Below are positions 9,873 through 34,083 of a stretch of DNA of 64,000 bases, in pieces. A program made the position numbers and the translations under genes. Below the pieces are notes generated by a model, which had not been told where the DNA came from, made no database searches, and saw nothing but the letters and a program-made list of their open reading frames with translations. The stretch is from Hyaloperonospora brassicae (taxonomy: Eukaryota; Oomycota; Peronosporomycetes; Peronosporales; Peronosporaceae), in NCBI GenBank assembly GCA_947650285.1, contig CANTFL010001489.1:1-64000 (forward strand). Reading direction: 5' to 3'. The number at the start of each line of letters is the position of its first letter. Position 1 is the stretch's first letter.

Positions 9873-11946
9873 TACATTAGAACCTGTCTAAAGTAATACT
9901 GCCTAATGTAATAACCCACCTAATGTAATATTCTTTTCTGGTCCCGACTTGGGACCCATATTAAATGTAATAAACCTTCCTAAACTGATACTTGGTAGCC
10001 AAAGGCTGGTCCCAAAATGTTTTTAAAGTAATACTCACTTTATTGAGGACTTTGAAATCAAGTGCAAAGCAGCAAATGGGCCTTGGGAAAGAATTCTAAA
10101 ATGGGCTTCTGCACCAGTTGTTTAGTCCTGATCTTCCCATTTATGTCCTTCATTTGATGGAGGCTTATGAGTAAGTCCTGGTTCAGGTCTGGCTGCTGCA
10201 ACCAAACGTATTCAAGCGTCTGCGTGGTATCGAGTGTCTGAGATGACATGACACGAGGAAGCCCTTCCGTGTCATCTTCCTATTCCTCCACTTGATCGGA
10301 TCGAAGGTGCTTAGCAATGATATCATCTTCATCTGGTGTGTAGGCGACCTCCTCCTCAGCAGGATAGTTAAAAAGGACTCTGCTGTCCATTGGATTCTGG
10401 CACCGCAACTGACGAATTCGCAATCGAAGATCTTTAATGACCTCATTGTCGATCGGCTGCTGTGCAGTAAATTCAGGGGTTCCCAAAGCTACCGAGCGAA
10501 TCGTGCAATGAAAGAAGCAATTCGAAATTGTTTCGGCCTTGACATCTAAGTTCCAAGCTGCAACCGCCATCCGAATGACCCGAAGAACATCAATCATCTC
10601 CGGATCTTCCCCATTTTGCTCGAGGCGCTGAAGGAACAAGCGATTGAAGCGCCTGCGATAATAGGCCTTCAAATTCCTGATTATGCCTGCGTCGCACGGC
10701 TGGAGTTTCGAAGTCGTATTTGGTGGAAGGTAAAAAAACTGTGGTATTGCGAACCGGATAACTGTAGGAAGTTGGGCAAGCGGTATATGCGCACTGAATT
10801 TATCCATGATTAGAAGAACTTGGCGTCCGGCCATGCGAGCATCAAATAATTTTAGTTAATCGTTGAAGATGGCTTGTGTCATCCATGCTTTATAGTTGTT
10901 TCGGTACTTGCAGCCGATGGTGTCAAGGTTGATGTTTTTGAAACAACGCGGACTTTTCGACTTTCCTATGACGAGGGGCGGCAGCCTGTCACTTCCATTT
11001 TCATTGCAGCACACTGCCAAGGTGATACGCTCTTTGTTTTGTTTGCGGCCTTCCAGATGCTTGGTTGCCAGCGAATAATCTGCCTGTGAATAAGTTTACG
11101 TAAGCACAAAGTTTCACAAAATATTTTAAACAAGACCACTTGCCAAAAAAACTTGTAGCCGGAAGAATAGCCCTGTTTCATCCATGTTGTGGATATCTTG
11201 TCACTCGTACTTGTCCAGCTTCTCCCGAATGGCAGAAGGCGATTACTAGATGAGTTTCATGTCATCAAAACCACTCTACCTAAAACGGCGAAAAGATTTG
11301 ATCCCATCCCGGTCTTTAAATGATTCCAGCCAGCCATTCGAGATCTCCGACACATCATGCTCAGGGTAGAGGTGGTCAAATATAAGGGTTGCTTTTTTGA
11401 TAAGATCCCGCTTACGTTGACGCGATCCTGATGGCTAAGGAGCCACTTAAAGAGAGCAGATTCCATCTGAGGATACTTAACAGTCCTTTGACGTTTTGCG
11501 TCAAGATTTCTGTTGTCGCCCTTCGCTAAGTTTGTCTCTTTCCTCTTGAGAAAGCCTGAGATTGTAGGCTGACTGACTTTCACCTTGTGCCTCTATTCTA
11601 GCCACTAGATGAGCTCCTTCTGGCTGAGCTGAGGATTCTTATCATGGTGCTCACACAAAGCAATGCGGATCTTGTCCGTCATTGTCGTGTACTGAGCGCC
11701 TTTTGGAGGCATATTGGAGGGAGAAAAGTTGGTGGGACGACGGGGGACTCCCTGTTTATATAGGTGAGGGGGTTGACTGGGGGTGGCGGCTGCAGCAAGA
11801 ATCAAAAATGTAAACAAAGCCGATCGCAATATTATTCCCACTTGAAAAATACTTAAAATTTCTGTCCCTGCCTAAAGTAAAAACCTACGTAAAGTAATAC
11901 CATGACATCGGTCTCAACGATATAACTTTAGACAGGTTCGACTTTA
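9873..11946 (-). mobile_element. Pogo/Tigger-type DNA transposon, decayed
   Basis: A roughly 2.07-kb element with terminal inverted repeats. The left end reads TA-CATTA-GAACCTGTCTAAAGT; the right end read on the minus strand is TA-AAGTC-GAACCTGTCTAAAGT. The shared 15-bp core sits at the same distance from a TA dinucleotide on both sides, as expected for Tc1/mariner/pogo elements that duplicate TA. Subterminal CCTAATGTAATA/CCTAAAGTAA motifs recur inside each end. It encodes a broken pogo transposase on the minus strand. Confidence 0.88.
10280..11712 (-). pseudogene. Pogo/Tigger transposase (CENP-B-like HTH plus DDE_1), broken
   Basis: ATG 11712 starts MPPKGAQYTTMTDKIRIAL, a CENP-B N-terminal helix-turn-helix, followed by SQPTISGFLKRK. 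Two stop codons interrupt the HTH region near 11605-11590. The DDE catalytic core follows: NMDETGLFF (first Asp, near 11190), VIGKSKSPRCFKNI, LLIMDKFSAH (second Asp, near 10800), PPNTTSKLQPCDAGII (third acidic residue, near 10720). A 69-nt intron (donor GTTTTT at 11152, acceptor CACAG ending 11084) would join FFRLQ to ADYSLATKHLEGRKQ, which matches the family order; without it the frame has stops. A further stop lies just before the second Asp segment. The C-terminal 184 codons are intact. It is probably inactive. Confidence 0.85.
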
Positions 11947-26075: not shown

Positions 26076-26080
26076 CATGT
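26076..26080. repeat. Target-site duplication CATGT, left copy
   Basis: CATGT immediately precedes the left LTR and recurs directly after the right LTR at 34059-34063. Five bases is the usual Gypsy target duplication length. Confidence 0.93.
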
Positions 26081-26470
26081 TGTAACGGGGCACACCCTTG
26101 CGTAACTTAACGCAAGGGATTTGGGTGCCCCGACGGACGTACACGTGGCGAGCGAGGAAGCGTAGGTAGGGTAAAAGTAGAACTGTTATATTAATAAATT
26201 AAGTCTTTAAACTACTGTCTCTTCGTTTGACTTAATTCAATTATACTAATATAACTGCATGTATGGTGACGTCTCGTCACCACTCATTGCGCGCGTCTTG
26301 CGGCGATTGGTGGGTTGATATCATCACGATATCAACCAATGAACAGACCCTTCTGGTCGACCCTTCAATATCACCGCTTCGGTGATATTGTTTAAAGAAT
26401 ATCCATCTTTATATTCTTTATTGTCACTTTCCTTAAGTGACAATATTATGTAACGGGCTGCCCCGTTACA
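26081..26470 (-). repeat. Left LTR (3' LTR in sense orientation), 390 bp
   Basis: It begins TGTAACGGGGCA and ends TGCCCCGTTACA, a perfect 12-bp terminal inverted repeat. It contains perfect internal hairpins at 26095-26118 (9-bp arms), 26313-26337 (10-bp arms) and 26366-26390 (11-bp arms). By eye it is identical to 33669-34058. Confidence 0.95.
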
Positions 26471-26482
26471 TCACCCCCCCTT
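26471..26482 (-). other. Polypurine tract
   Basis: On the sense (minus) strand AAGGGGGGGTGA directly abuts the 3' LTR, the expected site and composition of the plus-strand primer for reverse transcription. Confidence 0.8.
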
Positions 26483-26600
26483 AACTGATAGTCACCGTGT
26501 GACTATCGAAATATGGAGGCCACCCGTTGGCCACCATTGGGACAGGGAGTACTTGTTTGGTCCGTTCCACTCACTTTCCGCTTGACCTCGCATAGCTAAC

Positions 26601-28204
26601 ATGTCTATGCGAGGTGACTCAAGACCCACACAGCCTGGTGCTGTGCAAGCCTCTGCGGCAGACGCTTCGTCGTCTGCCGCCCTTCTTCGCCTGCAGCAAC
26701 AGGTGCTGCAGGTGCACGCGGTATCACGCCGCGTGCGTACGATGACCCCGATGTGGAGGTCATCTACTCTGGCGAGTCAGACGTGTCTGACTCGGGCAAT
26801 GCTCCAGAGGCGTCTCGCTCACCGGCGACGCCTCGGTATTCGCCAAGGCCACTGCCGAACGAACGGACTCGTGAGTTGCAACACAGTCTGTTCGGCAGTG
26901 ATGACGAATCTGATGATGAGTATGTTTGCTCATCACCGCAATCAGCTCGTGCTCCTTCGCACGAGCGACTTGACGATGGTGCAACCCATCGTCATACCGA
27001 CAGCCGTGGTACCAACAAAGGTACCACTGTGAAGCGTGATGAGCTGAAGCCGTGGCGTTTGCCCGAACGGCTCATCAATAGCCTGTCTCACGAGACAGGC
27101 CAACACCATCGAATACCCTTATTCGATGCAACCGAGCTTCACGGCTTGAGTCCCAGCGCGAAGAACTTTCGCGCTGAAGAAGACTTTTATCTCGATGTCT
27201 TCCTTAGACATCGATGGTACAATAGCAACCAAAAGCGTGACAAAACATCGCTTTTGGCTGCGTGGAACGCGTTCGTCCAAAACGTCAAGAATTTTGGACG
27301 AGAGGGGTGGCTCAAGAAACTTGAGGCAACACGCCTCAGGTTCGAACGGCGAACGCCAACCGGTGCTAGGTACCGGTTGCATTGTTTATCGAGTGAGGCA
27401 GGCATTCCTTGCCTCACATGGGGAGACCCTTGTGCGAGTTGTGTTGACAACTCGCAGCGTGCACATAGGGATGTGTACTCCCTAAGTTCGCCCTGGGGAA
27501 GGGCACATCTCTCGGAGGAGATGCGTGACGCGATTGCAAACTTGCAATCCGTCTACAAGCGCCTAGGGCGCGTGTTTACCGATGGGCCACAGGACTCATC
27601 GGATGGGTCTCGTCATATTGGTGGACGAGACCTTCAACATCCATCAACAGCTGAGAGCGGGGCTCCCAGCTGTTCCAAGAGGGTGGATACCCCCGCCACT
27701 GGACGAGGTAGCTCGTCCTTGATCCTGAATCGTCACGGTGATTCAAGATACGCTCCACTAGAAAGCGTTGATCACCGTGAGCATCCACCAAAGGATGTGG
27801 TGGAGGAGGAAAGACCTCCTCCAGAACCCCAGGCCCACCATCTCGACCCTTACGAGATGGATCGCGCAATCGATGAATTGCGCGATGACTTGAAGCACGA
27901 GCGCGACCGACGCTATGCTTTGACCGACACCGTGCGGAAGAACCGCAAGGATCACGAGGCTGATCGGGCGAGGGATCGCGCCGATTATGCCACGGCGCAG
28001 CTTCAGGTCGAGCGGGATGTCCGCTCCCTTTTCGGCGAGCTGGCGACAGCTCGCGGAGAGATAACTCGGTTGAATACCGAGGTATCATATCTGCGCGACC
28101 AGACGGATCGTCTGGAGCGCGAACGCAAGAACTTGATGGATGTTCTTGAACGTGGGGGCTATCTTCATCGGAAGAAGAAGGCTCGTACTGACAGTACGAC
28201 CTAA
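26601..28204 (+). CDS. Antisense accessory open frame of the Gypsy element (frameshifted near its start)
   Basis: On the strand opposite gag-pol, a frame is open from 26618 to 28204, over 520 codons. An ATG-led frame ([18 protein letters not shown], 26601) runs in another phase and would join it by a small shift around 26690-26740. The main frame reads [19 protein letters not shown] (acidic, serine-rich), [40 protein letters not shown] and [14 protein letters not shown]. It then has a charged predicted coiled coil (27857-28160: [14 protein letters not shown] to [16 protein letters not shown]) and a basic end (HRKKKAR), possibly a nuclear signal. It overlaps the integrase linker and chromodomain antisense from 27576 to 28204. 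No family is recognised. Antisense accessory genes are known in plant Grande Gypsy elements (gene23). It could be expressed or chance; its length argues for the former. Confidence 0.5.
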
Positions 28205-28808
28205 GCCTCCCCACGTAAAACGTAGGATGCGTGCGCATCCTACGTGGCAATTCGAGTGTGTATGCATTGCCCTTGCGATGCAACACTCGAAATGGCCCAA
28301 TGTATTTCGGCAGTAGTTTACTACTGCCGACACTAGTGACTGCATGTCCAGGTAGGTTTACCGTTGACAGTAGTACTAGGTCATTAACCTTAAATGAAAG
28401 AACATTTGCTCTTCCATTCTTGTCTGCGTTCCGTTTCTGACGGTCCACCGCATTTGCGATGGAGTCCTGAACGAAACGGACTACCGCTTCTCGAGTCAGC
28501 AGGAAGTTCTCTGCTGACTCTTTGTTTTGTTTAGCAGTGCGCTGCGTGCGCACTGCTAAGAGATTGCTCTCTTCTTCAGCGAGGTTGTCTTCTTCCTCGC
28601 TGGCATAATCGTTGGCGATGCTGAATATACCAGCATCGTCATCATCATCCGAATCAATAATAGCGTCTTCGCTATTATTGAGATGATCTTCTTCATCGAT
28701 GTCGACTTGATCGACATCGGCATCATACGTGACGACGTTTGCGTCGACACGTGATGAGCAAGAGCCAAAACGGTTTTTGCTCGAGCGAGTCCCTCCCCCC
28801 TTATCCAA
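27576..28808 (-). CDS. Gypsy pol 3' part: integrase C-terminal domain and chromodomain
   Basis: This continues pol in the -1 frame after the G-run shift near 28800. An acidic linker ([15 protein letters not shown] and DSDDDDDAG) is followed by [20 protein letters not shown] and the GPY/F-type segment [30 protein letters not shown] (about 28330-28200). A proline/serine/arginine-rich linker of about 140 residues follows. It ends with a chromodomain (about 27770-27597): [45 protein letters not shown]. The aromatic cage positions look filled (F, W, W). Chromodomains target such elements to methylated histones. The stop is at 27576. The linker and chromodomain overlap the antisense frame. Confidence 0.9.
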
Positions 28809-31800
28809 GAGTCACACTCTAGAAGGGTGGGCACACGTGGATGGCGTAGGCCATTCACGTAAAACGGTGTGTGCTGTGTTGAAGCATGCACCGAATTATT
28901 GATGGCGAATTCCACCATGGGTAGGAATTCGCTCCAACTCGGAAACGAGTGGACATATCCTCGAAGAATCTCTTCGAGGACACGGTTCGCACGTTCCGTC
29001 TGACCATCTGTTTCTGGATGGTCAGAAGTGGACATCTTCAATCGTGTTCCGAGAGTACGGAACACGGTTTTCCAAAATTCCGCCGTGAACCGAGGGTCAC
29101 GGTCGGATACGAGTTCACGGGGTAACCCGTGGAGTCTAAAGACCGTGTCTAGAAAGACACGAGCACAACCTTGAGCCTTGATTGACTCAGGGACAGCAGC
29201 AAGATGGACCATCTTGCTGAATCGGTCCACAAACACAAGAATACCATTATTCTTGTGAGCGTCTTCGGGAAACCCGAAGACGAAGTCCATTGAAACGGAC
29301 TGCCAGCACTCTGTCGGAACAGGCAGAGGCTGCAATGGCGCACGGGATGAAGGACTAGGCTTCACCCGTTGACATACTTCGCAAGCACGGATGTACTTGC
29401 GAACAAACTGATACTGGCGGGGCCAGTAAAAGTCGCGACTTACCGTGAGGTAAGTCTTTTCTCTACCACGATGGCCGCTTGTTGGGGCATCGTGACACTC
29501 ATACATGATGCGCAATCGCAAATCATGATGAGCGGGTACGACGACACGAGGCGTGTCGTCGGCAACAGCTGTATAGTACAGCAATCCGTTGCGTGTACTA
29601 TACCGATCCGATGAGGATCGGTACAAAGCCGGTAAATCCCTCATGGATTTACTGGATGGATTCACCAGATGATCCATCAATCGCAGAAGATCCTTATCTT
29701 CCGCGTATGCCTTTCGTACGTCGTCAAGTAAACTTGACGACGGGACACTGACTGACAGTGTCGCAACAGTGGGCTTGTCCTCACTGTTGGATTGCGCGTC
29801 CGGCTCGAAATCGGGCCGGCGCGAAAGAGCATCCGCGACGACATTGAGTCGTCCCGGTTTATACTCCACGGAGAAGTTATACTCCGCGAAGAAAGACAGC
29901 CACCTCGCCATTCTTTGCGAGAGGTGTGGGCTGTTTACGGCCGTGCGTAATGACGCATGGTCCGTGTAGACAACAAACGGTCTATCTCCCAAGAGATAGA
30001 CGCGAAATTTAGCCAGTGCGTATTTCATGGCAAGGAGTTCCTTGTCATGCACTGGGTAATTACGCTCAGCTGCTTGCAGCTGACGCGATTGATAACAGAT
30101 GACGCGCTCCGCGCCATCTGCATCAAACTGCATTAACGCACAGCCGATTGCGAAATCGCTGGCGTCACAGACCACATGAAATGGTCTGTCCTGATCTGCA
30201 ATCGCCAAGATCGGCGATTGCATCAAGCTTTGCTTGATACCTTCAAAGGAACGCTGACACTCAGCGTTCCATGACCACTTGACATTTTTCTTGAGCAAGC
30301 AAGAAAGATGAACAGTCATCTCGGCGTAGTTGCGCGAGTACTTGTGCAAGTACGCCGCAAGACCAAGGAACTTCCTTAGTCCCTTGACATCGACTGGCAC
30401 TGGCCAGTCGGTGATCGCCTTGATCTTTTCGGGATCAGGGCGTACGCCGTGTTTTCCCACGATGCACCCAAGAAGTGGTATTTCGCTAGCCGCGAATATA
30501 CACTTCTTGAGGTTGGCGTACAACTTATGCTTGCGCATAAGTTGAAGAACCTGACGAACGTGAGTTCTGTGAACTTCAACGTCCGTCTTCCCGTCCATAG
30601 CCCGGCTATGGACGAACACATCGTCGAAGTAACTCGGTGCGAAGTCTCGCACCGGTCTCAACAGATTTGTTACACATCTGTTGAATGTTGCAGGGGCATT
30701 ACTCAGCCCCTGTGGCATTACTAGCCACTCCCACAGCATCCCGCTGGGGGTACTCACTGCTGTGAACGGGACGTCCCGTTCACGCATCAGGATCTGATAG
30801 AATCCATCCATCAGATCCATGGACGAAAAGATGGTACTCTTTGACATACCATCTATGATTACGTCCTTCCTCGGTATCGGCGTCTGAGCCGGTACCGTTG
30901 CAGCATTCAACTTGTTGAATGCGTGCACTATCCGCCACCCTCCTGTGGCCTTTCGCACACAGAAGGTCGGAGAGCTGTGAGGGGATGTTGATTCCCTCAC
31001 ATGGCCCGCTGCTAAGCGATCGGCAAAGAACTTGTCGATCGCTATCACTTGTTCACGAGGCAGTGGCCACTGCTTCATGACACAGTATTTCGAGCCCGGT
31101 TTGAGCTCGATCTCGTGTCGAGTGCCTTTGTCCTTAGGCAACTCGCAAGGTACGGATTCAGGGAACACATCCCTGAATTCGATCAAATCCTTATACAAAG
31201 GATTTGCCTGAAGTGACTCCCAGGATTGGGACGCGTATCGCTCAATCCGAGTCTTCTCATCGAGGACACTTTCGTCCATCGATGAGCTGCTGAGAACCCG
31301 TTCGTTCTCAGCAAATACTGTTGCCGACCGAATGTCGGTCACATACTCGTCCTCTGTGACGAGTACGCAGATCTGCTTGACTTTGCCACTACGCAGATCA
31401 CGCAAGAACCGTTTCGGTTCTAGCGTTGGCAACTGAGTTATCTCCGAAGTCAACTTCGGAGGCACAATCAGATCAAGCGTATAAGCGCCTACGCTTGATC
31501 CGTCATTAACCAAGACGTTCAACGTCTCGGTTTCTTCCTGGGATCTTGCTTCCACAGGTTGCTGAGGGCCTGATCCCTCAGCAAGCAACTCTTGAGGAAC
31601 TCCTTCCTCAAGTACGTGGGGACTTATTCCCTCGACGTCTTCCGACTGTGGCTGTGCAACCACAGTCAGGAACCGATCCTCTACGGTCGACTCTCCAGTC
31701 GACCTAGGATTTTCATGTTGCCCCTTGGGGGCAACAGATTTCTTTCTTCTAAGATGCTGCCCGCTAGGCATGCATCCATGTCCCGGTCCACTCGACTTAT

Positions 31801-32485
31801 TCGAGTGGTGGACCTTCGGCGCAGCCTGTACTTCTGTACAGCCGCCGGGAGCTTGCTCCACAGTGTAGTGATCAACTACACTGTGACCTTGTGCAGTCGT
31901 GCTAACGACCGTACCGCAAGTGAGGCCATCGCACTCACTCGCAGAACATCCACACGCTTGTGGACGCTCCAAGATGTTCATCAGATGGCCATCTGATGAA
32001 CAAGCAGCAGGCATCTTCACGGATCGATGCTGCCAGCTCACCCTTGGCTCGTATTTTCTGAGCCAAGGTAATCCCAGGATGACATCAAATTTGTCATCCA
32101 GATCTAGTACGATGAAATCATCATCGTACTGCTCGCCCTCTAACGTGTAGTGGATTCCTACTACACGTTTCTCAACGGTTATCGATGCGCCTGTTGCAAG
32201 GCGCACCGTCATCCTTGTGAGGGGAATGTCGCGCTCAACGAACTTGAGCCTACGACCCTCTAGTGACTGGCGACGAACAAAGTTGTTCGACGCCCCACAG
32301 TCTACTAGGGCACGAAGCGACAAGTCATTTGTCGCTTCCAACTTCAAGGTGATGAGCGAAACATCATCACCAGGTGCAGAGACACACAATGATTGTGTAT
32401 CTGGAGCAACTTTCGTCAAGAGGTTTGCAAATTCTCTTGAGGTTGCTGGATCAGTAGGGCGCTCCGCCCCTACTGACCCCGACCA
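28556..32485 (-). CDS. Gypsy pol: protease, reverse transcriptase, RNase H, integrase core
   Basis: The pol frame is entered by -1 shift from gag at 32485. Numbering from 32419: protease LVDCGASNNFV at 38-48, with Cys where Ser/Thr is usual after the catalytic Asp, and ILGLPWL at 114-120. Reverse transcriptase spans about 430-655: SSMDLMDGFYQI, MPQGLSNAPATF and the catalytic YFDD at 597-600. RNase H spans about 745-870: VVCDASDFAIGC, DKELLAM, YTDHASL. Integrase: the zinc motif H-x-H-x-C-x-x-C at 976-1016 (GHRGREKT to CEVCQRVK), then SMDFVFGFP, VSDRDPRF and DGQTERANR holding D, D and E. The frame runs out at 28556 after a one-base shift at a G run near 28800; the authentic continuation is the 27576-28808 frame. 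Confidence 0.95.
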   Translation of the reverse strand, partial: WSGSVGAERPTDPATSREFANLLTKVAPDTQSLCVSAPGDDVSLITLKLEATNDLSLRALVDCGASNNFVRRQSLEGRRLKFVERDIPLTRMTVRLATGASITVEKRVVGIHYTLEGEQYDDDFIVLDLDDKFDVILGLPWLRKYEPRVSWQHRSVKMPAACSSDGHLMNILERPQACGCSASECDGLTCGTVVSTTAQGHSVVDHYTVEQAPGGCTEVQAAPKVHHSNKSSGPGHGCMPSGQHLRRKKSVAPKGQHENPRSTGESTVEDRFLTVVAQPQSEDVEGISPHVLEEGVPQELLAEGSGPQQPVEARSQEETETLNVLVNDGSSVGAYTLDLIVPPKLTSEITQLPTLEPKRFLRDLRSGKVKQICVLVTEDEYVTDIRSATVFAENERVLSSSSMDESVLDEKTRIERYASQSWESLQANPLYKDLIEFRDVFPESVPCELPKDKGTRHEIELKPGSKYCVMKQWPLPREQVIAIDKFFADRLAAGHVRESTSPHSSPTFCVRKATGGWRIVHAFNKLNAATVPAQTPIPRKDVIIDGMSKSTIFSSMDLMDGFYQILMRERDVPFTAVSTPSGMLWEWLVMPQGLSNAPATFNRCVTNLLRPVRDFAPSYFDDVFVHSRAMDGKTDVEVHRTHVRQVLQLMRKHKLYANLKKCIFAASEIPLLGCIVGKHGVRPDPEKIKAITDWPVPVDVKGLRKFLGLAAYLHKYSRNYAEMTVHLSCLLKKNVKWSWNAECQRSFEGIKQSLMQSPILAIADQDRPFHVVCDASDFAIGCALMQFDADGAERVICYQSRQLQAAERNYPVHDKELLAMKYALAKFRVYLLGDRPFVVYTDHASLRTAVNSPHLSQRMARWLSFFAEYNFSVEYKPGRLNVVADALSRRPDFEPDAQSNSEDKPTVATLSVSVPSSSLLDDVRKAYAEDKDLLRLMDHLVNPSSKSMRDLPALYRSSSDRYSTRNGLLYYTAVADDTPRVVVPAHHDLRLRIMYECHDAPTSGHRGREKTYLTVSRDFYWPRQYQFVRKYIRACEVCQRVKPSPSSRAPLQPLPVPTECWQSVSMDFVFGFPEDAHKNNGILVFVDRFSKMVHLAAVPESIKAQGCARVFLDTVFRLHGLPRELVSDRDPRFTAEFWKTVFRTLGTRLKMSTSDHPETDGQTERANRVLEEILRGYVHSFPSWSEFLPMVEFAINNSVHASTQHTPFYVNGLRHPRVPTLLECDSWIRGEGLARAKTVLALAHHVSTQTSSRMMPMSIKSTSMKKIISIIAKTLLLIRMMMTMLVYSASPTIMPARKKTTSLKKRAIS

Positions 32486-32491
32486 TTTTTT
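32451..32491 (-). promoter_or_regulatory. Putative -1 programmed ribosomal frameshift signal between gag and pol
   Basis: On the sense strand the heptamer A-AAA-AAT (32491-32485) lies in the gag frame as TCA-AAA-AAT, matching X-XXY-YYZ. Eight bases later a stem forms: TCAGTAGGGGCG with CGCCCTACTGA around a GAG loop (32476-32451), 11 pairs with one bulged G. The gag stop (32472-32470) lies inside the stem. A -1 slip enters the pol frame, which is open across this site. Because hairpins are everywhere in the element, the stem is weaker evidence than usual; the slippery heptamer in the right frame is the stronger part. Confidence 0.75.
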
Positions 32492-33624
32492 GATGGCCCG
32501 TCTCGCTGTTGCGGCTTCGCAACAGCGCTGGACCCACGCCCATTGCCCTTTCTGGCGAATGGTCGTCCATTTCGCTCAGTACTGTTTGGTACTGGGCGCG
32601 GAGCACTACACTCGTATGCGTAGTGCCCTAACTTCTGACAGCGATTGCACCTCTGCAATCGCTTGTTGCTTGTAGAGCGAGGTCTCTCGCTCTCAACATA
32701 ACAGAGGTCCATTGGTTCTGGACCTCCGATCTCTTGTCGTCTCGGTGGACGGTAAGAGTTTGAGCTAGCATGAGCCTGTCTCATGCTAAAGTCTTCCTGT
32801 TCCGCGGCTGATATCGCTTCTTCAAGCGTATTCAGCTCAAGGCGGAACAGGTGGCTCCTGACGGGCCCTTCTGCGAGCCCTTGCATGAACACCGTAATCA
32901 ACGTGTGTTCATGAACTGGGTTTGCAGTTATACTACTCGCAAGGAGTCGTATATGTTGTGCGTAAGCGTGCACATCACGCTTACCCTGCTTGAGTTTCAG
33001 GAGCTCTGAACGAGCCCTGAACTCAGCACGTGGCGGCTCAAACGTTTGTCTGAGCCGGGACTTGAAGTCATCTAGCGACCTAAACACATTTGGGTCGCTA
33101 CTCTCGAGTCCCAGGGACCAAGTTTTGGCACGCCCTGCCAAGTGGGTCTGAGCAAATGTGAGTTTCATTTGCTCATCTTCGACGCGACGAGCCCTTAGGG
33201 CTCTGTCGAGTTCGACAAACCATAGTAACAGGGAGTCCTCCGGGACTCCACTGTACTTGGAGATGTCGACTTTCATCACTTCGGGACGACGCGCATGCGC
33301 CGTCCCGCCCACAGCAGCATGGAATTGCTGCTGTCTCAACAGCTCCGTCTGTTGAGCACCGAGTTCTCTCAACTGCTCGGCCTGTTGAGAGCCTTGCTGG
33401 TGAAGCAAGGCTACTTTCTCCCTCTCGAGAGCAAGTTCATTGTGAATGAACTTGGCGATAGCAGCATGTTGTTGGTCTCTGTCTAGAGACTCCAACATGG
33501 TGCTGACGACGAGTTCGCCTACGGTAGAACTCATTCGTTCTACCGCACCCCATTCGATGTCACTCAAATGGGTAAACCCTTCACGCGTGGCGTGAAAGGT
33601 GTCTTCTTCATCCAACATGTTCAT
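32470..33624 (-). CDS. Gypsy gag polyprotein with CCHC zinc knuckle
   Basis: ATG 33624 starts a 384-residue protein. The N-terminal third is helical and glutamine-rich (LHQQGSQQAEQLREL, then TELLRQQQFHAA). The capsid-like middle reads KVDISKYSGVPEDSLLLWF, FAQTHLAGRAKTW, LDDFKSRLRQTFEPP, SELLKLKQGKRDVHAYAQH and FMQGLAEGPVR. The nucleocapsid part has CNRCQKLGHYAYEC (C-x2-C-x4-H-x4-C) followed by a basic tail ending at TAG 32470. It forms the virus-like particle and binds element RNA. The leader between the 5' LTR and the ATG is only 44 nt, and the start codon sits in a perfect 8-bp hairpin (33612-33629). Confidence 0.95.
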   Translation of the reverse strand: MNMLDEEDTFHATREGFTHLSDIEWGAVERMSSTVGELVVSTMLESLDRDQQHAAIAKFIHNELALEREKVALLHQQGSQQAEQLRELGAQQTELLRQQQFHAAVGGTAHARRPEVMKVDISKYSGVPEDSLLLWFVELDRALRARRVEDEQMKLTFAQTHLAGRAKTWSLGLESSDPNVFRSLDDFKSRLRQTFEPPRAEFRARSELLKLKQGKRDVHAYAQHIRLLASSITANPVHEHTLITVFMQGLAEGPVRSHLFRLELNTLEEAISAAEQEDFSMRQAHASSNSYRPPRRQEIGGPEPMDLCYVESERPRSTSNKRLQRCNRCQKLGHYAYECSAPRPVPNSTERNGRPFARKGNGRGSSAVAKPQQRDGPSKNGRGQ

Positions 33625-33658
33625 GTTGGATGATGTGGTCCTTGGAAGGACTACAAAG

Positions 33659-33666
33659 TGCTACCA
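33659..33666 (-). other. Primer-binding site, 8 nt
   Basis: In sense orientation, two bases after the 5' LTR, TGGTAGCA could pair with a tRNA ending UGCUACCA, as eukaryotic initiator tRNA-Met does. The match does not obviously extend further; an 8-nt site is precedented in yeast Ty3. Confidence 0.55.
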
Positions 33667-33668
33667 GG

Positions 33669-34058
33669 TGTAACGGGGCACACCCTTGCGTAACTTAACG
33701 CAAGGGATTTGGGTGCCCCGACGGACGTACACGTGGCGAGCGAGGAAGCGTAGGTAGGGTAAAAGTAGAACTGTTATATTAATAAATTAAGTCTTTAAAC
33801 TACTGTCTCTTCGTTTGACTTAATTCAATTATACTAATATAACTGCATGTATGGTGACGTCTCGTCACCACTCATTGCGCGCGTCTTGCGGCGATTGGTG
33901 GGTTGATATCATCACGATATCAACCAATGAACAGACCCTTCTGGTCGACCCTTCAATATCACCGCTTCGGTGATATTGTTTAAAGAATATCCATCTTTAT
34001 ATTCTTTATTGTCACTTTCCTTAAGTGACAATATTATGTAACGGGCTGCCCCGTTACA
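33669..34058 (-). repeat. Right LTR (5' LTR in sense orientation), 390 bp
   Basis: By eye identical to the left LTR, including all internal hairpins, and ending TGCCCCGTTACA. CATGT follows directly at 34059-34063. Confidence 0.95.
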
Positions 34059-34083
34059 CATGTACCTTATAAAGTAGCGAGGC

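What the first reader, a model, noticed from the sequence alone, without database searches (positions are those of the whole stretch)
26081..34058. A retrotransposon built from back-to-back short perfect hairpins, in LTRs and coding sequence alike
Reading along the Gypsy element, a perfect inverted repeat with 6-12-bp arms and a 2-14-nt loop appears about every 30-40 bases. In 28900-30010 alone I find about 30. Examples: 28220-28245 (12-bp arms, loop TG), 28958-28980 (TCCTCGAAGA/TCTTCGAGGA), 29234-29257 (CACAAGAATA/TATTCTTGTG), 29261-29281, 29719-29742 (CGTCGTCAAG/CTTGACGACG), 29980-30001, 33612-33629 over the gag start, and 26366-26390 in the LTR. By chance an 8-bp arm pair with a loop under 10 nt is expected once in several kilobases. 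Host genes and other transposons in this window do not show it. Two explanations, both inference: copying by a reverse transcriptase that switches template at near-palindromes and perfects them, or selection for structured RNA (packaging, silencing escape or small-RNA production). I know of no description of such an element.
Basis: partly seen in the sequence, partly recalled or inferred. Interest (0 to 1): 0.9.

Follow-up and report, generated by a model that had tools for sequence, protein, structure and literature searches.

The report
Retrotransposon full of short perfect hairpins
A young, many-copy jumping gene of a downy mildew carries about 130 short perfect hairpins, fitted into its protein-coding parts mainly through the free letters of the genetic code; three related families sampled in the same genome carry them too, and hairpins tend to stop growing once they are stable enough.

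Summary
Family A (26081-34058, minus strand, chromodomain Ty3/Gypsy) holds 141 perfect inverted repeats (arm 7+, loop 12 or less) against 5.1 in shuffles; pol holds 67 against 3.7 when only synonymous codons are shuffled. Mirror repeats are not enriched; the rest of the window is near chance.

It is not unique to this element. Three related Gypsy families in the same genome (about 60% amino-acid identity to A) are also enriched, N with 4-6-bp stems only. A more distant Gypsy, another RT locus and three Gypsies in foreign records show little or nothing; four of 12 Copia loci are slightly enriched.

Where one more pair is attainable synonymously, A, B and C add it far above chance until about -12 to -14 kcal/mol, N until about -4; then extension falls to chance (small numbers). 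In A, longer arms are poorer in GC.

Multi-base differences between copies are not templated by local reverse complements. I favour selection on single-stranded element nucleic acid, probably genomic RNA, for local hairpins up to a family-specific stability. Perfection of quasi-palindromes by reverse transcriptase is the main rival. Strand tests cannot separate RNA from DNA. Nine library searches showed no description.

The parts
26076..26080 (.). target-site duplication CATGT (left)
   Evidence: CATGT on both sides of the element
34059..34063 (.). target-site duplication CATGT (right)
26081..26470 (-). 3' LTR (sense orientation), 390 nt, identical to the other LTR
   Evidence: run of 390 identical nt; repeat D1 (300 nt, 100%)
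33669..34058 (-). 5' LTR (sense orientation), 390 nt; seven hairpins with arms of 8-11 bp although non-coding
26474..26482 (-). polypurine tract AAGGGGGGG before the 3' LTR
   Evidence: read directly
33649..33666 (-). candidate primer-binding site (starts TGG two nt inside the 5' LTR); extent inferred, tRNA not tested; no hairpin of arm 7+ covers it
32470..33624 (-). gag ORF, 384 aa (Retrotrans_gag, Ty3_capsid; zinc knuckle below Pfam's cut-off); 21 hairpins against 1.6 in synonymous shuffles
28556..32419 (-). pol ORF, 1287 aa: protease, RT, RNase H, integrase; 67 hairpins against 3.7 in synonymous shuffles
27576..28808 (-). overlapping ORF with integrase-tail SH3_Tf2-1 and chromodomain
28220..28245 (.). 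example hairpin, 12-bp arms, loop 2
28958..28980 (.). example hairpin, 10-bp arms, loop 3
29234..29257 (.). example hairpin, 10-bp arms, loop 4
29719..29742 (.). example hairpin, 11-bp arms, loop 2
29980..30001 (.). example hairpin, 9-bp arms, loop 4
26366..26390 (.). LTR hairpin, 11-bp arms, loop 3 (second copy at 33954-33978)

Best explanation
Family A and its relatives B, C and N are oomycete chromodomain Ty3/Gypsy elements whose nucleic acid carries many short local hairpins. SHOWN: the hairpins are far beyond chance, occur in coding and (in A) non-coding parts, and fit the protein by synonymous codon choice. SHOWN on modest numbers: they are extended above chance only until a stability that is alike in A, B and C and much weaker in N. 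INFERRED: selection acts on a single-stranded form of the element, most likely the genomic RNA, and favours any local stem up to a stability at which the benefit saturates or turns into a cost. INFERRED and weakest: the benefit is compaction or Gag-bound packaging of the genome, or shielding the RNA from antisense or small-RNA pairing. Hairpin positions are mostly not shared between families, so density and strength seem to matter, not particular sites.
For: (1) 67 against 3.7 (pol) and 21 against 1.6 (gag) in synonymous shuffles; random synonymous recodings of the A protein give no more hairpins (0.91/kb) than those of 29 relatives' proteins (0.55-1.18/kb). (2) A pol realises 44-47% of the non-overlapping hairpins its protein permits for arms of 5+ to 9+, 36% (20 of 55) at 10+, 10% (4 of 41) at 11+; B 25-33% up to 8+, then 14% and 3%; C 10-21% up to 9+, then 0 of 66; N 41% at 5+, 8% at 6+, 0 of 88 at 7+. 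The seven LTR hairpins of A, free of coding, are also 8-11 bp. (3) Mean dG A -12.3, B -12.2, C -11.2, N -3.9; in A arm length and arm GC anticorrelate (Spearman -0.35, p=1e-4, n=117), unlike chance hairpins elsewhere in the window (0.00 and -0.07, n=171 each). (4) When one more pair is attainable synonymously, A adds it in 85-92% of cases down to -10 kcal/mol, 80% at -12 to -10, 67% at -14 to -12 and 38% (n=13) beyond; shuffled baseline 42%. N falls from 68% (n=72) to 17% (n=24) at -6 to -4 (shuffled N there 34%). Bootstrap interval of the logistic dG coefficient excludes zero in A, C and N, touches it in B. (5) In A, third-position variants shared by two or more copies are rare in arms (2 of 382 against 29 of 976, p=0.004), singletons are not (11 of 382 against 27 of 976). 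(6) Loops peak at 3-6 nt in A and 3-5 in N, as expected of physical hairpins.
Against: No strand signal: folding z is equal on both strands (A -5.06 / -4.79); single mismatches in A stems are G-U 18, A-C 16; in B 7/1 and C 6/3; among synonymously fixable ones A 6/1, B 2/6, C 3/2. MS2 and Qbeta are nearly as symmetric, so this neither supports nor excludes RNA. The third-position depletion in arms is absent in B (1 of 119 against 6 of 938) and N (16 of 257 against 46 of 771); pooled p=0.54. Between N copies other than L060, each appears to have gained 2-3 times more hairpins than random placement gives (for example 13 against 4.9, L055 to L058); I read this as separate losses from a hairpin-rich ancestor, but nothing polarises it. 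Perfection of arms exceeds that of RNA phages, as conversion would also give. Bins past the optimum hold 4-24 cases and none is clearly below chance. At fixed arm length the dG difference is significant alone only for N (4 bp, p=0.001, with a small same-direction effect in shuffles) and C (8 bp, p=0.011); the combined p=6e-4 leaves out six non-significant tests at 5-6 bp in A, B and C and reuses hairpins; in N arm length itself also predicts stopping. The arm-GC relation is not significant in B, C or N. No RNA data exist here.
Confidence: 0.52

Rival explanations
1. Reverse-transcriptase mutational drive: nascent cDNA folds back at quasi-palindromes and copies itself, so arms are perfected each cycle; over-stable hairpins are purged because they stop RT. 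Family differences reflect different RTs.
For: Stems are unusually perfect: excess perfect against one-mismatch stems 24:30 (A pol, 9-pair window), 24:15 (B) and 12:7 (C, 8 pairs), against about 1:8 (MS2) and 1:12 (Qbeta, 8 pairs). Both strands are equal. Apparent hairpin gains between N copies other than from L060 mostly exceed random placement. Quasi-palindrome mutation by template switching is reported in yeast (PMC3820800 and PMC8604942, abstracts read).
Against: Multi-base variant clusters are not templated locally: 0 of 17 (A), 0 of 13 (B), 1 of 44 (N) at p<=0.1, though the test has low power. From L060, the N copy richest in hairpins, gains are 2-5 against 2.4-3.7 at random. A pure copying process predicts no stability optimum and some amino-acid bending (not seen).
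Confidence: 0.27
2. Selection at the single-stranded cDNA (minus-strand) stage: hairpins condense or protect ssDNA, or pace reverse transcription.
For: Strand symmetry is as expected if DNA hairpins matter. In A shared variants avoid arms but singletons do not, so maintenance appears tied to passage through the replication cycle.
Against: No positive evidence specific to DNA; ssDNA hairpins of 4-6 bp (N) should be weak (general knowledge).
Confidence: 0.1
3. Escape from RNA silencing: local stems make the transcript a poor target for small RNAs; stems stay too short for Dicer.
For: The longest perfect arm in any of the four families is 14 bp, nearly all are 11 or less. Phytophthora small RNAs are reported (PMC3804510, start of abstract in a search listing only).
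Against: One host with one silencing machinery should give one set point, yet N differs from A, B and C. Not tested with small-RNA data.
Confidence: 0.08
4. Artefact of composition, codon bias or assembly.
For: None found.
Against: Dinucleotide and synonymous shuffles, mirror-repeat control, host sequence, 40 scored copies at 99-100% identity over 1.5 kb, and 30 fetched loci with 16.7-17.3 repeats/kb.
Confidence: 0.02

Closest known systems
Genome-scale ordered RNA structure (GORS) of RNA viruses; RNA phages MS2 and Qbeta tested here
   Same: Genome-wide local structure in coding sequence beyond shuffles, on both strands; MS2 and Qbeta sense z -2.7 and -2.8. What GORS means is recalled; the papers with the term were seen only in a search listing.
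   Different: Phage stems are mostly imperfect and few reach 8 bp; here stems are often perfect, 8-11 bp in A, with an apparent stability optimum.
Coding palindromes in mitochondrial genes of Nematomorpha (PMC6649704)
   Same: Perfect inverted repeats inside conserved protein genes by codon degeneracy; third-to-third codon pairing disfavoured in long ones (here 9 of 64 in A); positions change between relatives.
   Different: Theirs reach 284 bp; ours are short and dense, with a ceiling. Their discussion raises repeat conversion as a mechanism and calls it unestablished. Abstract, discussion section and passages read.
Ty3 genomic RNA of yeast, SHAPE-mapped (PMC11381356)
   Same: Ty3/Gypsy genomic RNA with structured regions.
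   Different: Described as a well-folded core of about 20% of the sequence; genome-wide perfect hairpins are not mentioned in the abstract or passages read. Its sequence was not tested here.
Chronos and Archon, oomycete Ty3/Gypsy groups (PMC5348765)
   Same: Oomycete Ty3/Gypsy; Chronos also has a chromodomain after the integrase.
   Different: Both carry an extra archaeal-type RNase H; no second RNase H family was found by Pfam in A, B, C or the N fragment. Abstract and passages read.
Quasi-palindrome template-switch mutation (yeast; PMC3820800, PMC8604942)
   Same: Produces perfect arms from imperfect ones, also in coding DNA (abstracts read).
   Different: Leaves templated multi-nucleotide changes, not found among copies here.

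Membership tests
Ty3/Gypsy LTR retrotransposon with chromodomain | LTRs, target-site duplication, polypurine tract | tested here: met
Ty3/Gypsy LTR retrotransposon with chromodomain | gag; domain order protease-RT-RNase H-integrase; chromodomain | tested here: met
   (SH3 and chromodomain lie in an overlapping second ORF in this copy)
Chronos (oomycete) | archaeal-type second RNase H | tested here: not met
   no such Pfam match in A, B, C or N (N only a 1028-aa fragment)
Chromoviruses sensu stricto | RT phylogeny within the Chromovirus clade | not tested
   no reference RT tree was built
GORS-type genome | folding energy well below shuffles along the genome | tested here: met
   A mean z -5.06 sense, -4.79 antisense over 131 windows
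GORS-type genome | structure forms in the RNA in cells | not testable with these tools
   no probing data
Nematomorpha-type coding palindromes | perfect repeats in coding sequence, third-to-third phase disfavoured | tested here: met
   phases 29, 9, 26 for arms 8+ in A; no bias in N (19, 19, 22)
Nematomorpha-type coding palindromes | long repeats (over 15, up to 284 bp) | tested here: not met
   longest arm 14 in the four families
Product of template-switch (quasi-palindrome) mutation | multi-nucleotide changes templated by the partner arm | tested here: not met
   1 of 74 clusters at p<=0.1; low power

The most novel reading that the evidence does not exclude
A clade of retrotransposons has a quantitative structural trait: a family-specific set point for the stability of dozens to over a hundred local hairpins per element, reached through synonymous codons and held by selection that saturates or turns negative beyond it. 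It would act as a physical identity or packaging code for the genomic RNA that differs between families in one host.
Probability: 0.27. Interest if true: 0.92.

Novelty: new variant of a known kind. Interest (0 to 1): 0.8.

Why it matters
If right, synonymous sites of a retrotransposon are under strong, measurable selection for hairpin strength, realising close to half of what the A protein permits. It gives a natural system, with four families in one host at two apparent set points, for asking why long RNA genomes are structured. It also warns that synonymous divergence in such elements is not neutral, so dating or dN/dS tests on them could be biased.

Tried and rejected
Strand test by G-U against A-C mismatches: looked at first like evidence against RNA selection in A; rejected as a test after MS2 and Qbeta gave nearly the same symmetry. 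Sense against antisense folding: no useful difference. Regular spacing or array: rejected, placement is random. Fixed total hairpin span as a ruler: spans are peaked (N 13-14, B 20-22, A 23-24), but in A arm length hardly falls as loops widen (my reading of the table, not a formal test), and in A, B and C stability explains stopping better than arm length, so a ruler is not claimed. Loop motif: none consistent; loops are A-rich in A, T-rich in N, neither in B or C. Positional homology between families: weak excess within 1 nt (A-B 3 of 38, expected 0.7; A-C 2, expected 0.5; A-N 5 of 38, expected 1.8; B-C 4 of 19, expected 0.3; B-N and C-N 0), none within 6 nt except B-C. Compensatory double changes in N: none in 315 pairs. 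DNA of relatives outside the genome: viral contigs, genome contigs and phages gave none at those tools' sensitivity; plasmids gave three records used as controls.
Full report
WHAT IT IS. The element at 26081-34058 is a very young Ty3/Gypsy LTR retrotransposon on the minus strand: two identical 390-nt LTRs and a CATGT target-site duplication, gag, a protease-RT-RNase H-integrase ORF, and an overlapping ORF with the integrase-tail SH3 and chromodomain. The genome (G000, 100.56 Mb, 898 contigs) is an oomycete: a host gene in the window is 85% identical over 91% to Hyaloperonospora arabidopsidis PGAM5, and the relative with a species name and the highest identity is from Peronospora effusa (92% over pol residues 400-900; 85% over 1229 aa). 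The assembly itself is unnamed. The first look found 2186 candidate places for a 1.5-kb pol query; the 40 scored are 99-100% identical, so 40 is a lower bound on copies.

IS IT REAL. Yes. 141 perfect inverted repeats against 5.1 +- 2.1 in 100 dinucleotide shuffles, the rest of the window near chance (50 against 40.5 +- 5.5 in 10 shuffles), mirror repeats not enriched. Synonymous-codon shuffles: pol 67 against 3.7, gag 21 against 1.6. Hairpins of arm 7+ with their loops cover about 42% of the element; 127 do not overlap. Folding of 120-nt windows has mean z -5.06 on the sense and -4.79 on the antisense strand in A, -1.8/-1.9 in B, -1.4/-1.3 in C, -1.0 to -1.3 in three N loci, -0.6 to 0.0 in two Copia loci and -0.5 to +0.3 in two host stretches.

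WHO ELSE HAS IT. I label the families A (window), B (L035-L053, L061), C (L031-L034, L056, L062) and N (L054, L055, L057-L060). Over 801 aligned RT-integrase columns A, B/C and N are about 60% identical in amino acids, B and C 80%. A has 16.7-17.3 repeats/kb at arm 7+, B 7.3-8.5, C 4.4-5.7, N 0-1.3. But N is rich in 4-6-bp stems: 13.2-16.1/kb 5-bp stems against 2.9-3.5 in shuffles in L054, L055, L057, L058 and L060, and 10.4 in L059. In L060 synonymous shuffles give 51 against 15.1 (5 bp), 93 against 51 (4 bp), 9 against 3.8 (6 bp) and 0 against 1.6 (7+ bp). Controls: a distant Gypsy (L078, 28% amino-acid identity) and an RT-bearing locus (L075) are near chance apart from a few 7-bp arms in L075; of 12 Copia loci, L064-L067 have 0.8-2.1/kb arms of 8-9 bp and the rest are near chance. 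Of three Gypsy stretches in plasmid records that look like contamination, L079 has none, L080 a slight excess of 6-bp arms (7 against 3.3 +- 1.4) and L081 a slight excess of 5-bp arms (19 against 12.7 +- 3.2). So, as far as sampled, the strong trait belongs to a group of oomycete chromodomain Gypsy elements, not to Gypsy in general.

HOW IT IS WRITTEN. The amino acids seem not to be bent: random synonymous recodings of A's protein give no more hairpins (0.91/kb) than those of 29 relatives (0.55-1.18). Pairing phases that let third codon positions do the work dominate in A (29 and 26 against 9); N shows no phase bias (19, 19, 22). A pol realises nearly half of the non-overlapping hairpins its protein permits up to 9 bp, then drops: 4 of 41 at 11+. 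B, C and N also drop, at their own ceilings; MS2 and Qbeta realise 19-24% at 5+ and decay without a plateau. The seven LTR hairpins have the same size as the coding ones.

THE SET POINT. Mean hairpin stability is -12.3 (A), -12.2 (B), -11.2 (C) and -3.9 kcal/mol (N), for arms of 7+ (N 5+) and loops 3-9. B reaches the common value with shorter, GC-richer arms (66% GC against 54% in A), and within A longer arms are GC-poorer (Spearman -0.35, p=1e-4, n=117; B +0.07, C -0.23, N -0.18, none significant); chance hairpins of the window show no such relation. Given that one more pair is attainable by synonymous change, A adds it in 85-92% of cases down to -10 kcal/mol, then 80%, 67% and 38% as stability rises past -10, -12 and -14 (n=40, 21, 13); the shuffled baseline is 42%. 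B gives 64% at -14 to -12 and 25% beyond (n=14, 12), C 25% at -14 to -12 (n=4), N 68%, 50% and 17% as stability rises (n=72, 54, 24). Four further N copies give 11-23% in the last bin (n=9-14 each, related copies); shuffled N gives 34% there, so N is at best weakly below chance. At fixed arm length, stopped hairpins are more stable than extended ones with p<0.05 only for N at 4 bp (p=0.001) and C at 8 bp (p=0.011); A at 9 bp, N at 5 bp and B at 8 bp have p=0.06-0.08. Combining 11 such tests gives p=6e-4, but six tests at 5-6 bp in A, B and C (p=0.54-0.88) were left out and levels share hairpins. I call this the most interesting new result and a provisional one.

MAINTENANCE. Among 30 partial A copies, variants shared by two or more copies number 5 in 1323 arm sites, 9 in 423 loop sites and 38 in 2762 outside; singletons 26, 19 and 66. 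At third positions: 2 of 382 against 29 of 976 (p=0.004); in B (1 of 119 against 6 of 938) and N (16 of 257 against 46 of 771) there is no such depletion, and pooled the effect vanishes (p=0.54). Counting all N sites, shared variants are 10 of 571 in arms against 91 of 2657 outside. In N, retention of hairpins exceeded random placement of the same differences (P<=0.05, 60 placements) in 18 of 30 ordered, non-independent pairs, for example 45 of 52 against 37.4 (L060 to L054), but not L060 to L059 (37 against 40.0). Gains from L060 were near chance (2-5 against 2.4-3.7); apparent gains in most other directions were about 2-5 times chance, which fits separate losses from a hairpin-rich ancestor but also real gains. 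Copies were chosen by similarity to the query (A) or by profile score (B, N), which biases towards young or intact ones.

MECHANISM. A copying process should leave templated multi-base changes and grow arms as far as it can; I found neither, with limited power for the first. Selection for local single-stranded structure with a saturating, perhaps two-sided, optimum fits best. Whether RNA or cDNA is the target is open: strand tests are symmetric, and RNA phages behave nearly alike. The role (packaging, shielding) is inference.

NOVELTY. Nine searches of the open-access library (listings read) showed no description of such an element; papers outside that library were not searched. The nearest kinds are ordered RNA genomes and the coding palindromes of Nematomorpha mitochondria. 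I rate it a new variant of a known kind.

Noticed in passing
33669-34058 / 26081-26470: The first LTR hairpin (TGTAACGGG / CCCGTTACA) repeats inside the LTR the inverted repeat that also forms the LTR's own two ends (TGTAACGGGG ... CCCCGTTACA).
   Followed up: no
28556-28808: pol and the SH3/chromodomain part lie in two overlapping ORFs in this copy, while many other copies show longer open frames (1515-1796 aa listed); not examined further.
   Followed up: no
26753-28204: A 483-aa open frame on the strand antisense to the element, without Pfam match; may be a side effect of the palindromic sequence.
   Followed up: no
29790-29979, 28720-28904, 28331-28492, 27887-28034, and 26119-26263 with its LTR twin 33707-33851: The longest stretches of the element without a 7-bp hairpin (145-190 nt); the LTR one may hold promoter or transcript ends.
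   Followed up: no
L064-L067: Four Copia loci have a small excess of 8-9-bp arms, in L064 and L065 mostly within one 500-nt stretch.
   Followed up: partly
L054-L060 alignment: Many differences between N copies are clusters spaced by three bases, as if adjacent codons changed synonymously together.
   Followed up: no
L001-L030 alignment: In A, loops carry about twice as many singleton variants per site (19 in 423) as the sequence outside hairpins (66 in 2762); B does not show this (1 in 114 against 105 in 2654).
   Followed up: no
L079, L080, L081: Plasmid records NZ_CP087956, NZ_CP065944 and NZ_CP065945 carry Gypsy-like genes and look like eukaryotic contamination of bacterial assemblies.
   Followed up: partly
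10280-10834: DDE_1 transposase fragment in the window, without hairpin enrichment around it.
   Followed up: no
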